A stretch of 64,000 nucleotides of DNA from Kribbella monticola (GTDB lineage Bacteria > Actinomycetota > Actinomycetes > Propionibacteriales > Kribbellaceae): contig NZ_QFXK01000029.1 in assembly GCF_003261635.1 (NCBI RefSeq), positions 124,001-188,000 on the forward strand. The letters are read 5' to 3'. A program made the position numbers and the translations under genes. Shown in pieces: positions 12,158-16,399 of the stretch. Below the pieces are notes generated by a model that did no database searches, had not been told where the DNA came from, and saw nothing but the letters and a program-made list of their open reading frames with translations. The first letter of the stretch is position 1. Every line of letters starts with the position of its first letter.

Positions 12158-12979
12158 ATGGAGCACCTGGGGACGACCCGATCGGCCGCCTTCTTCGATC
12201 TGGACAAGACCATTATCGCCCGCTCCAGCACGCTGGCCTTCTCCCGCCCGTTCTACGCCGGCGGGCTGATCAACCGGCGCACCGTGCTGCGCAGCGCCTA
12301 TGCCCAGTTCGTCTACCTGCTCGGCGGCGCGGACCACGACCAGATGGAGCGGATGCGCGAGTACCTGTCCGCTATGTGCACGGGCTGGGACGTCCAGACG
12401 GTCCGCGCGATCGTCGCCGACACCCTGCACCACATCGTCGACCCGATCGTGTACGACGAGGCGGTGACCCTGATCGAGGAGCACCACGCGGCTGGCCGGG
12501 ACGTGGTGATCGTGTCCTCCTCCGGCTTCGAGGTGGTCGAGCCGATCGGGGCGATGCTCGGCGCCGACAAGGTGATCGCCACCCGGATGGTAGTTGCCGA
12601 TGGCAAGTACACCGGTGAGGTCGAGGAGTACGTCTACGGCCCGCACAAGGCGACTGCGATCGCCGCGCTGGCCGAGGCGGAAGGCTATCTGCTGAAGGAT
12701 TCCTACGGGTACTCCGACTCGATCACCGACGAGCCGATGCTCGCCGCGGTCGGCCATCCGTTCGCGGTGAACCCGGACCGCGCGCTGCGCCGGGTGGCCG
12801 TGTCCCGCGGCTGGCCGGTGCTGGATTTCAGCAAGCCGGTCGCTCTGGGCGAGCGCACCCGCTTCCACGAAGTACGCCGTCCGGCCGTCGCGGCGACCGT
12901 CGTCGGCGCGGGGCTGGCGGCGGCCGGTGTCTTGCTGTATGCGGCTCGCCGGCGGTCTCGCGGCAGCGGCACTGCGTGA
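12158..12979 (+). CDS. HAD-IB family phosphatase with C-terminal membrane helix
   Basis: A SerB-like HAD superfamily IB hydrolase, 273 aa. All motifs are present: FFDLDKT (motif I, nucleophile D), VSSS (motif II), the conserved Lys in GPHKATAI (motif III), and YSDSITDEPML (motif IV, metal Asps). A cap domain lies between motifs I and II. The C-terminus has one membrane helix (about 247-265) followed by basic RRRSR, suggesting membrane anchoring. It corresponds by position to Rv3661 of M. tuberculosis, which is divergent from ssd and precedes the Ms1 RNA and Rv3662c. Substrate unknown; the family includes phosphoserine and lysophospholipid phosphatases. Confidence 0.9.
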   Translation: MEHLGTTRSAAFFDLDKTIIARSSTLAFSRPFYAGGLINRRTVLRSAYAQFVYLLGGADHDQMERMREYLSAMCTGWDVQTVRAIVADTLHHIVDPIVYDEAVTLIEEHHAAGRDVVIVSSSGFEVVEPIGAMLGADKVIATRMVVADGKYTGEVEEYVYGPHKATAIAALAEAEGYLLKDSYGYSDSITDEPMLAAVGHPFAVNPDRALRRVAVSRGWPVLDFSKPVALGERTRFHEVRRPAVAATVVGAGLAAAGVLLYAARRRSRGSGTA

Positions 12980-13019
12980 CGGATCCTCAATTTTCACAGC
13001 TTCATGAAGACCGGCTTAG

Positions 13020-13039
13020 CCCTTCCCAGGAAGGGTTTT
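13020..13039 (+). terminator. Rho-independent terminator of the HAD gene
   Basis: CCCTTC-CCAG-GAAGGG followed by TTTT, 41 bp after the HAD stop. It is a textbook intrinsic terminator. Confidence 0.75.
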
Positions 13040-13051
13040 CCGGAGTACAAA

Positions 13052-13258
13052 AGAAGCACAAAGGACGGAGCCTTCCAGCGAAGTCCCGCAGAGAATCGCA
13101 CGGCAGCCAGGCACCCACGCGGCGACCAGCCCATCCCAACCGGGCAGCGCGACCTCACGTCAGGTTCGAGAGAACCACGACCGAGGCGGCAGACAAGGTG
13201 CACGCTTGGTAACCAGGATGGCGTGCCAGCGACGGCGCTCTCAGCTGAGAGCGCCGTT
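13052..13258 (+). ncRNA. Candidate Ms1 (6S-like) RNA
   Basis: This 314-bp gene-free interval lies between the Rv3661-type HAD gene and the leftward Rv3662c-position gene, the locus that encodes the abundant MTS2823/Ms1 RNA in mycobacteria. A possible promoter (TTCCCA 13023-13028, 17 bp, TACAAA 13046-13051) precedes about 200 bases with many local hairpins: GGTTC-GAGA-GAACC near 13161, GCACGC/GCGTGC around 13200-13227, and a very strong terminal palindrome at 13232-13257. No credible coding frame fits. Identity rests on synteny and structure; I could not align it to Ms1. The 5' end is uncertain. Confidence 0.5.
13232..13257. terminator. 26-bp perfect palindrome, terminator-like
   Basis: Each arm is ACGGCGCTCTCAG or its complement with no spacer, ending the candidate Ms1 RNA on the plus strand and lying 37 bp past the stop of the leftward gene at 13294. 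It could terminate both. Confidence 0.65.
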
Positions 13259-13293
13259 CGCATGTGCGGACCACAGTGTCCTTGCTGGGCGTC

Positions 13294-14085
13294 TTATTTC
13301 CCTTGCTGGGCAGAGATGTTGAGCGGTGAGCGTTCGGCACCGAGTGCGACCACCTCACACGATCGCAGCAACCAGTCCCGTACACCGGTCAGCCCGCCGC
13401 CGGCGTAGTCGCGCAGGCCTTGCGCGTACGACCCGGCCAGTTCGAGATGCCCGGCCTCGGGCACCGTGACCGAGACCGGGTCGATGCCGCGGGCAACGAG
13501 CAGGCCACGTTCGGCGGCCCGGGCGACCAGGCCGTTCGCGGTCGGGAACGGCCTCAGTACGGCGAGTTCGGCGTGCACGATCGCGGCGACCACGATCCCC
13601 GGCGCGCTCGTCGGCCGGCTCAGCGCGCGGGCCAGGCCCTGCAACCTGTCCCACATCTCGTCGGCACCGGGCGCCTCGGGAAGGCCTGGGATGTCATCCG
13701 GCAGTGGTTCCCGACTGGTACGCAAGTGGCCCAGCTGGTCCTCGGTGCCGAGTTCAGCGGCAGCCAGCTGGTGCAGCCTGGTCCAGACCTGTACCGGCGT
13801 CTTCTCCAGCTGCGGGGCGAGGCTCATCAGCTCGCCGGTCATCCGGACGGCACCGGCCGACCGCGGGTCGCCGGCGCCCCGGCGTACCTGCTCCAGGGTG
13901 TCCTGGCTGCCGGCCAGCGCCGCTGAGGCGTGGGCGCCGCGCAGCAGGGCCTCGGCGGTCATGTCCGAGCCGACCTTGCGCAGGCCGCGGTCGCGGAGCA
14001 GCACGTCGACGGCATCCCGGGCCGCGCGGGCGGCCGAACCGACCCCCTCCAGCGTCGCCAGCGGCTCGAACACATCAGCAGTCAT
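13294..14085 (-). CDS. Conserved protein with Fic-like motif (Rv3662c position)
   Basis: A 263-residue cytosolic protein at the place held by Rv3662c in mycobacteria. The start at 14085 is chosen because a TAGGGT -10 box ends 7 nt upstream (leaderless), although the frame stays open for 41 codons further. Near residue 190 the sequence VLRPFPTANGLVARAAERGLL resembles the Fic core HPFxxGNGRxxR, but His is replaced by Arg and the final Arg spacing is relaxed, so AMP-transfer activity is doubtful. The upstream all-helical part, with HASAALAGSQDTLEQVR, also resembles Fic proteins. Function unknown. Confidence 0.75.
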   Translation of the reverse strand: MTADVFEPLATLEGVGSAARAARDAVDVLLRDRGLRKVGSDMTAEALLRGAHASAALAGSQDTLEQVRRGAGDPRSAGAVRMTGELMSLAPQLEKTPVQVWTRLHQLAAAELGTEDQLGHLRTSREPLPDDIPGLPEAPGADEMWDRLQGLARALSRPTSAPGIVVAAIVHAELAVLRPFPTANGLVARAAERGLLVARGIDPVSVTVPEAGHLELAGSYAQGLRDYAGGGLTGVRDWLLRSCEVVALGAERSPLNISAQQGK

Positions 14086-14164: not shown

Positions 14165-16399
14165 ATGGCCGCCAGCACCGACTCCGCCGGGGTCCCGAGG
14201 TTCAGCATCGTGGTCCCGTGTCACAACGCGCGGGCCTGGCTGCGGCCGTGCCTCGATTCGGTCCTCGGCCAGTCCTTCACCGACCTCGAGGTGGTCGGCG
14301 TCGACGGCGCGAGCACGGACGGCTCGGGCCGGATCCTGGACGAGTACGCCGCGGCCGATCCGCGGGTCCGGGCCGTGCACCTGAGCGAGGACGTCGGGCT
14401 CGGGCTGACCCGCAACGCCGGTCTCAAGGAGTGCCGCGGCGAATACGTGTTGTTCCTGGACGCCGATGACGTCTACCTGCCCGGCTCGCTGGCGGCGATC
14501 TCGGCCCGGATCGACGACACGTCGCGGCCGGACCTGGTGATGTTCGACTACGAGCGGATCTTCTGGGACGGCAAGGTGGTCCGCAACCAGCGGCACGACG
14601 CGTTCGCCCGGGAGGGCCAGGGTGTCTTCACCGCGGCGGAACGGCCGGTCTTCCTGACCTTCCTCGAGGTGATCTGGAACAAGGCCTACCGGCGCGACTT
14701 CCTCAGCTTGCACGGCTTCGTCTTCACCACCGGGTACTACGAGGACGTGCCGTGGACCTACTCGACGATGCTCACGGCTGGCCGGATCGCCACCTTGGAC
14801 CGGGTCGTCGTGCACTACCGCCAGCACCGGACCGGCGGGAACATCCACGCCACCCGGACCCGGCGGCAGTTCGACATCTTCGACCAGTACGACCGGGTGC
14901 ACGCGTTCATCTCCGCCGATCCGGAGCTGACCGGCTGGCGGCGGTTCGCGTTCGACCGATCGCTGGACCACATCCTGGCCGTGCTGGCCAAGCCCGAGCG
15001 GATCGATCCGGATGACCGGGCCGAGTTCTTCCACGCCGGCGCCGCGTTCGCCAAGCGCTGGAAGCCTGAGGGGTACGCCGCCGATCGGACCGGCCGGGGA
15101 TTTCGCCGCTGGCTGCTGATCCACGACGACTACGCCACCTACTCGACACTCAAGCTCAGCTCGAAGATGCTGCGTGGCAGCGCCTCCCTGCCGAGTCCCC
15201 GCAAGGCCGTCGACCGGCTGCTGCACCGGGAGCTGGAGCCGAACCTGGTCCTCTACGCCGCGTACTGGTTCAAGCAGTACGCCTGCAATCCGCGGGCGAT
15301 CTTCGAGAAGGCGTCCGAGCTCGCACCGCAGTTCCGTGGCGTCTGGGTCGCCGACGCCGACCACGTCGACGCGATCCCGGAGGGCGTGGAGTATGTGGTG
15401 GCCGGCTCCCCGGCGTACGAGAAGCTGGTGAACCGGGCGACGTACTTCGTCAGCAACATGAACCTGCCGCGCGAGCTGGACAAGCGGGAGGGACAGATCC
15501 ATGTCCAGACCCAGCACGGCACGCCGCTGAAGACGATGGGGACGGATCTCAGGCACTTCCCGATCGCGGCGAAGGACCTGGACCTGGAGGAGTTGATGCG
15601 CCAGGTCGACCGCTGGGACTACAACATCTCCTCGAACCGGTACTCCTCGGAGATCTGGGAGCGCACCTACCCCTCGCATTTCGAGGAGCTCGAGTACGGC
15701 TTCCCGCGGAACGACCGGTTGCTGACCGCCACGCTGGACGAAGTACGGGCGATCCGGGCGTCGTTCGGCTTCGACGACTCGCATCTGGTCGTGCTCTACG
15801 CGCCGACCTGGCGGGACGGGCAGGACGCCGTACGGACTCCCAGCGGTCTCGTCGATCTCGGCGGCACGGGCATCCACCTCGACCTGGACCGGCTGGCCGC
15901 GGCTGTCGGTGAGCACGGGCGGGTGCTGGTCAGGACGCACTACTCGCTGTCGAAGCATCCCTCGGTTCATTCGAGCCGGGTGGTGGACGCGTCGGACCAC
16001 CCGCGGGTGGAGGACCTGATGCTCGCGGCCGACGTGCTGATCTCGGACTACTCGTCGATCACCTTCGACTACGCGAACCTGGACCGGCCGATCCTGCTGC
16101 TGGTCGACGACAAGGGGACCTACGAGAACGCCCGCGGGACGTACTTCGACATCACCGAGTTCCCGCCGGGGCTGGTGGCGCGATCGGCGGAGGAGTTGTT
16201 CGCCGCGTTGCAGACCGGCCGGTTCGCCGCCGCGGAGGCGGCCAAGCACCGGCAACTGTTCCGCGAGAAGTTCTGCGAATTCGACGACGGGCAAGCCGCA
16301 GAACGCGTTGTACGGCGGGTGTTTCTCGGCGAGACCGAGGTGCCACCGGTGATCCCGCTCGCTGACCGGCGACCGGCGCCGTCGCCACATCGGCTCTGA
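14165..16399 (+). CDS. GT2 glycosyltransferase fused to TagF-like polyol-phosphate polymerase
   Basis: A 744-residue two-domain enzyme for wall teichoic-acid-like polymer synthesis on the cytosolic face. Residues 1-240 are a GT-A family 2 domain: FSIVVPCHNARAWLRPCLDSVLGQ, VDGASTDGS, and FLDADDVY with the DxD metal motif. A linker precedes a CDP-glycerol:poly(glycerophosphate) transferase domain (about 350-725) with QTQHGTPLKTMGTDL (catalytic His region), YAPTWRDG, RTHYSL and the SDYSSITFDYANLDRPIL signature. Probably it adds a sugar and extends a polyol-phosphate chain in one polypeptide. No other gene here completes a teichoic pathway on this side; the main glycan region starts at 33 kb. Confidence 0.88.
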   Translation: MAASTDSAGVPRFSIVVPCHNARAWLRPCLDSVLGQSFTDLEVVGVDGASTDGSGRILDEYAAADPRVRAVHLSEDVGLGLTRNAGLKECRGEYVLFLDADDVYLPGSLAAISARIDDTSRPDLVMFDYERIFWDGKVVRNQRHDAFAREGQGVFTAAERPVFLTFLEVIWNKAYRRDFLSLHGFVFTTGYYEDVPWTYSTMLTAGRIATLDRVVVHYRQHRTGGNIHATRTRRQFDIFDQYDRVHAFISADPELTGWRRFAFDRSLDHILAVLAKPERIDPDDRAEFFHAGAAFAKRWKPEGYAADRTGRGFRRWLLIHDDYATYSTLKLSSKMLRGSASLPSPRKAVDRLLHRELEPNLVLYAAYWFKQYACNPRAIFEKASELAPQFRGVWVADADHVDAIPEGVEYVVAGSPAYEKLVNRATYFVSNMNLPRELDKREGQIHVQTQHGTPLKTMGTDLRHFPIAAKDLDLEELMRQVDRWDYNISSNRYSSEIWERTYPSHFEELEYGFPRNDRLLTATLDEVRAIRASFGFDDSHLVVLYAPTWRDGQDAVRTPSGLVDLGGTGIHLDLDRLAAAVGEHGRVLVRTHYSLSKHPSVHSSRVVDASDHPRVEDLMLAADVLISDYSSITFDYANLDRPILLLVDDKGTYENARGTYFDITEFPPGLVARSAEELFAALQTGRFAAAEAAKHRQLFREKFCEFDDGQAAERVVRRVFLGETEVPPVIPLADRRPAPSPHRL

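What the first reader, a model, noticed from the sequence alone, without database searches (positions are those of the whole stretch)
12980..13293. Probable Ms1 (6S-like) RNA locus
The order HAD-IB phosphatase, 314-bp gene-free gap, leftward gene of the Rv3662c position copies the mycobacterial Rv3661 - MTS2823/Ms1 - Rv3662c locus. The gap has a possible promoter (TTCCCA, 17 bp, TACAAA), about 200 bases rich in hairpins, and a 26-bp perfect palindrome at the end. Ms1 binds core RNA polymerase in mycobacteria; a homologue in this lineage would extend that regulator.
Basis: partly seen in the sequence, partly recalled or inferred. Interest (0 to 1): 0.75.

Follow-up and report, generated by a model that had tools for sequence, protein, structure and literature searches.

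The report
Ms1 small RNA gene in Kribbella
The gap holds the gene for Ms1, a known small RNA that in related soil bacteria and mycobacteria clings to RNA polymerase when growth stops; Kribbella was already on the published list of bacteria predicted to have it, so this is a solid but expected find.

Summary
The 314-bp gap (12980-13293) between a HAD-IB phosphatase gene and a leftward Fic-like gene holds a structured RNA on the + strand, predicted start A13058, predicted end about 13257-13261 (about 200 nt). A covariance model built only from Streptomycetaceae loci, the family in which Ms1 (scr3559) is experimentally shown to bind core RNA polymerase, finds this place as its single hit in the 8-Mb genome (49.7 bits, E 1.6e-6). 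A model without any mycobacterial member then finds the loci that Rfam's Ms1 family (RF02566) recognises, so Kribbella, Streptomyces and mycobacterial RNAs form one family at one locus. Promoter position, TACAAA box, 5' hairpin, long hairpin and 3' palindrome are conserved; helices covary. Rfam's Ms1 model misses the window, but it also misses Streptomyces loci, so that negative carries little weight. 37 of 38 genomes of the genus have one copy. The extension to this lineage is not new: Vankova Hausnerova et al. 2022 list Kribbella. Polymerase binding in Kribbella is untested. Side lead: an Ms1-like minimal hairpin in one genome of another actinobacterial class.

The parts
12158..12979 (+). 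HAD-IB family phosphatase gene (SCO3558 / MSMEG_6173-type flanking gene)
   Evidence: TIGR01490 196.5 bits; homologues lie beside the RNA in Streptomyces, Nocardioides and RF02566-bearing genomes
13023..13028 (+). -35-like element TTCCCA
   Evidence: same position in 30 Kribbella loci as TTCCC/TTCAC; mycobacteria-type loci have CTTGCTG/CTTGATG at the same spacing
13046..13051 (+). -10 element TACAAA, in the conserved block AGTACAAA
   Evidence: invariant in 30 Kribbella loci; mycobacteria-type loci have TACAAAGGAA, Streptomyces TACAAA/TAGAAA
13058..13261 (+). Ms1 RNA gene (predicted transcript, about 200-204 nt)
   Evidence: held-out CM hit 13077-13235; start placed by the rule -10 + 12, which matches the RF02566 start in L113 and gives 220-225 nt to the hairpin end in Streptomyces against the 228 nt mapped by RACE
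13063..13086 (+). 5' short hairpin
   Evidence: fold; in most relatives a short stem often capped by UUCG, with pairs changed on both sides (helix 1)
13098..13226 (+). long imperfect hairpin: outer helix 13098-13111/13213-13226, inner helix 13115-13127/13197-13209
13110..13127 (+). 5' conserved core GGCACCCACGCGGCGACC
   Evidence: near-invariant in Kribbella; its ACCCACGCG part is shared with Streptomyces and mycobacteria-type loci
13197..13214 (+). 3' conserved core GGTGCACGCTTGGTAACC
   Evidence: its GCACGC..TGGTAACC part is shared as above
13147..13190 (+). apical arm, lengthened in this species and a few relatives
   Evidence: core-to-core distance 94 in the window and 93-94 in L136, L139, L141, but 77-80 in the other Kribbella
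13229..13261 (+). 3' hairpin (contains the 26-bp palindrome 13232-13257), terminator-like, no U-run
   Evidence: 10 of its 15 pairs changed on both sides across 16 Propionibacteriales-type loci (helix 6)
13294..14085 (-). Fic-like protein gene (the Rv3662c-position gene)
   Evidence: Pfam Fic E 8e-4, sub-threshold; homologues on the far side of the RNA in Streptomyces and most RF02566-bearing loci

Best explanation
The gap is the Kribbella Ms1 gene. A sigma-A-type promoter (13023-13051) starts a free-standing RNA of about 200 nt at A13058, which ends after the 3' hairpin (about 13257-13261). Shown here: the RNA is homologous by sequence, structure and locus to Streptomyces scr3559/Ms1 and to mycobacterial Ms1/MTS2823. 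Inferred from those relatives: it builds up when growth slows, its long open-promoter-like hairpin binds core RNA polymerase without the primary sigma factor, and it thereby controls how much polymerase is kept and released for outgrowth.
For: Streptomycetaceae-only model R1: single hit in the genome at 13077-13235 +, 49.7 bits, E 1.3e-8 in the window and 1.6e-6 in 8 Mb. R2 (Streptomycetaceae and Propionibacteriales, no mycobacteria): hits in 37 of 38 genomes of the genus, one copy each; 107 of 148 in the order, 147 of 297 in the class; its f5 hits coincide with RF02566 Ms1 at 147-310 bits and lie beside HAD and mostly Fic-like homologues. Structure: 96% of cells paired, 14 pairs changed on both sides, 0 of 500 shuffles as good, slid versions far worse; the window's own fold holds in 30 Kribbella. 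Polymerase binding of the Streptomyces homologue at this locus: PMC9130861 and RIP-seq PMC11077062.
Against: Rfam's Ms1 model does not reach the window. No expression data. The -35 is weak and a strict sigma-70 scan finds no promoter. The 3' hairpin has no U-run. The predicted RNA (about 200 nt; about 174 nt in relatives L003 and L004) is shorter than mycobacterial Ms1 (about 304 nt). Inner-helix pairs are invariant, so they give no covariation evidence.
Confidence: 0.95

Rival explanations
1. A true 6S RNA: it binds the holoenzyme with the primary sigma factor and acts as a promoter decoy.
For: Overall hairpin shape is 6S-like; the same Streptomyces locus was once called ssrS/6S.
Against: No RF00013 match in the whole genome even at E 10; the Streptomyces homologue binds core, not HrdB holoenzyme, for the most part.
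Confidence: 0.03
2. A cis-acting element: a long 5' leader or 3' end of a neighbouring mRNA, or only a bidirectional terminator between two convergent genes.
For: The flanking genes converge and the palindrome could terminate both strands.
Against: The element has its own conserved promoter position; the + strand folds better against shuffles than the - strand; conserved single-copy core over many actinobacterial families; in L051 the RNA lies inverted between its neighbours, which a leader or 3' end would not tolerate.
Confidence: 0.02
3. A short protein gene, ORF 13004-13408 + or 12994-13263 -.
For: The ORFs exist.
Against: Insertions and deletions that are not multiples of three, and stop codons in relatives.
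Confidence: 0.01

Closest known systems
Ms1 of Streptomyces coelicolor (scr3559, Str13; PMC9130861, PMC11077062)
   Same: Same locus (HAD-IB upstream), same promoter position, same two conserved cores, long hairpin, GC-rich 3' hairpin; detected by a model from this family
   Different: About 200 nt here against 228 nt; inner arms differ; apical arm with an extra GAGA-capped hairpin; polymerase binding not tested in Kribbella
Ms1 / MTS2823 of mycobacteria (Rfam RF02566; PMC4191392)
   Same: Same flanking genes, TACAAA promoter box, A start, core motifs, 5' and 3' short hairpins around a long hairpin
   Different: Mycobacterial RNA is about 304 nt with much longer internal arms; RF02566 does not match the window
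Ms1 candidates of Kribbella in Table 4 of PMC9130861
   Same: Same genus and very probably the same gene, predicted there by synteny and BLAST
   Different: That list gives no covariance model and no experiment for Kribbella; its supplementary sequences could not be read here
6S RNA (RF00013)
   Same: Open-promoter-like hairpin that binds RNA polymerase
   Different: No sequence or model match; binds holoenzyme

Membership tests
Ms1 RNA | Locus: downstream of the HAD-IB hydrolase gene, next to an oxidoreductase/Fic-type gene | tested here: met
   criteria in PMC9130861
Ms1 RNA | Sequence-structure similarity to an experimentally proven Ms1 (Streptomyces) | tested here: met
   held-out model R1, 49.7 bits, only hit in the genome
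Ms1 RNA | Match to Rfam Ms1 model RF02566 | tested here: not met
   no match at E 10; the model also misses Streptomyces loci, so it tests the mycobacterial branch only and is not a defining feature of the wider family
Ms1 RNA | Indirect link to RF02566 members by a model without mycobacteria | tested here: met
   R2 finds ten loci that carry RF02566
Ms1 RNA | Long hairpin with an internal bubble and two short hairpins near the ends | tested here: met
   description in PMC4191392. Which internal loop corresponds to the mycobacterial central bubble was not settled
Ms1 RNA | Own sigma-A-like promoter and start at A | tested here: met
   by alignment only
Ms1 RNA | Abundant in stationary phase | not testable with these tools
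   no RNA data held for this genome
[quoted passage not shown]
   needs RNA immunoprecipitation; shown for M. smegmatis and S. coelicolor in the papers cited
6S RNA | Match to RF00013 | tested here: not met
   no match in the genome at E 10

The most novel reading that the evidence does not exclude
The Ms1 family reaches beyond the class to which the published Ms1 carriers belong: one genome of another actinobacterial class (G006, locus L112) has a minimal, roughly 114-nt Ms1-like hairpin with the same two cores (AACCCACGCG and GCGCATGGTACC), closed by a 16-bp perfect stem, with promoter-like hexamers upstream and no HAD neighbour, which would put the origin of Ms1 earlier than thought.
Probability: 0.3. 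Interest if true: 0.45.

Novelty: already known. Interest (0 to 1): 0.22.

Why it matters
It confirms by an independent, held-out covariance test what was so far a synteny-based prediction for this genus, gives likely borders, and shows that Streptomyces, Kribbella and mycobacterial Ms1 are linked by one profile although plain BLAST did not link S. coelicolor to M. smegmatis (PMC9130861). It also shows that Rfam's Ms1 model covers only the mycobacterial branch and leaves the gene unannotated in many actinobacteria.

Tried and rejected
Rfam scan of the gap at E up to 10: only chance-level hits such as PVT1_3 and Scr3920, rejected. Plasmid collection: no match. Protein-coding reading of the ORFs 13004-13408 + and 12994-13263 -: rejected because spacings between conserved blocks vary by lengths not divisible by three. 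6S RNA: rejected. A strict sigma-70 consensus scan finds no promoter, which says little for actinobacteria; conservation was used instead. The single U-rich terminator-like site at 13276-13292 lies outside the conserved RNA; it was not taken as the Ms1 end. The class of G006 was searched for more L112-like loci: it holds only three genomes here, one with a match. A literature search for later work on Kribbella small RNAs gave nothing beyond PMC9130861.

Full report
Place and genome. The window lies in an 8.0-Mb genome (G000, 90 contigs). The best homologues of its HAD protein are from Kribbella (81-83% identity), so the genome is Kribbella or very near it; 37 further genomes of the same genus are held.

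The observation. HAD-IB gene 12158-12979 +, gap 12980-13293, then a leftward Fic-like gene. The + strand of 13054-13262 folds with z -4.4 against dinucleotide shuffles.

Test of identity. Vankova Hausnerova et al. 2022 (PMC9130861) showed that S. coelicolor scr3559, between sco3558 (HAD) and sco3559, binds core RNA polymerase, mapped its ends (3,934,693 to 3,934,920, 228 nt), and listed 146 genera with Ms1 candidates, Kribbella among them. I extracted the gap after the HAD gene from 47 Streptomycetaceae-type loci, built model R1 from them alone and searched the window: 13077-13235 +, 49.7 bits, next best 12.2 bits. In the whole genome it is the only match (E 1.6e-6). R1 also finds the other Kribbella, Nocardioides and related loci. 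These E-values come from a shortened calibration and are rough.

Link to mycobacteria. Model R2, built from R1 matches in Streptomycetaceae and Propionibacteriales-type loci without mycobacteria, was run on 396 genomes of the phylum. Its hits in family f5 are about 216 nt long, lie beside HAD and mostly Fic-like homologues, and the ten of them that were scanned match Rfam Ms1 (RF02566) at 147-310 bits, eight above the gathering score. The same Rfam scan gave no Ms1 hit in the Streptomyces-type loci L088 and L098, so the absence of an RF02566 hit in the window is not evidence against Ms1.

Anatomy. In an alignment made without reference to structure (A2) the RNAalifold structure keeps 96% of cells paired with 14 pairs changed on both sides; none of 500 shuffles equals this and slid structures drop to 27-46% paired. 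Most of this support comes from the 3' hairpin (10 pairs), with further pairs in the outer helix and the apical arm; the inner core helix is invariant. The window's own fold holds in 30 Kribbella sequences (93.9% of cells), except for its extra apical hairpin, which is specific to this species (a different insertion of like length is in L136, L139 and L141). The 5' hairpin is a short stem, often UUCG-capped, in relatives and is lengthened here.

Ends. AGTACAAA is invariant in the genus and most mycobacteria-type loci have TACAAAGGAA. In L113 the RF02566 match starts at the A 12 bases after the first base of TACAAA. The same rule gives A13058 here and 220-225 nt from start to hairpin end in twelve Streptomycetaceae loci, against 228 nt by RACE in S. 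coelicolor. Predicted RNA here: 13058 to 13257-13261.

Distribution. One copy per genome: 37 of 38 in the genus, 107 of 148 in the order (most listed misses are small genomes of family f77), 147 of 297 in the class, with filters that lose weak matches. This agrees with the published distribution and its remarks on genome size (PMC9130861).

Function. By homology (PMC4191392, PMC9130861, PMC11077062) the RNA should accumulate in stationary phase and bind core polymerase without the primary sigma factor. Nothing here tests that for Kribbella.

Side lead. The only phylum-level hit outside the class, L112 in G006 (36 bits, E 8.8e-5 for that genome, so about 0.03 expected over 396 genomes), folds as a long hairpin around both Ms1 cores with promoter-like hexamers upstream. 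It lacks the HAD neighbour and was not found in the two other genomes of its class. It is a lead only.

Noticed in passing
L112 (G006:C213:12694-12805 -), also L154: Minimal Ms1-like hairpin in a genome of another actinobacterial class, with both conserved cores, a 16-bp closing stem and promoter-like hexamers; no HAD or Fic neighbour (a patatin-like ORF is near).
   Followed up: partly
L051, 3833-3978 - strand: In Nocardioides flavescens the Ms1 gene is inverted between its usual neighbours, while the model still hits it at 50 bits.
   Followed up: no
whole genome G000: 6C RNA (RF01066), which lies close to Ms1 in mycobacteria-type loci, was not found in this genome at E 0.001.
   Followed up: partly
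G431 (same genus): The only genome of the genus without an R2 match; it is a draft of about 350 contigs, so a gap in the assembly is possible.
   Followed up: no
window 15225-15307 -: ARAGORN calls a tRNA-Ser(tga) inside the long glycosyltransferase ORF; probably a false positive.
   Followed up: no
L148, L149, L150, L151: Within the class and order some genomes give only partial model matches (92-111 nt), which may reflect compact or diverged variants of Ms1.
   Followed up: partly
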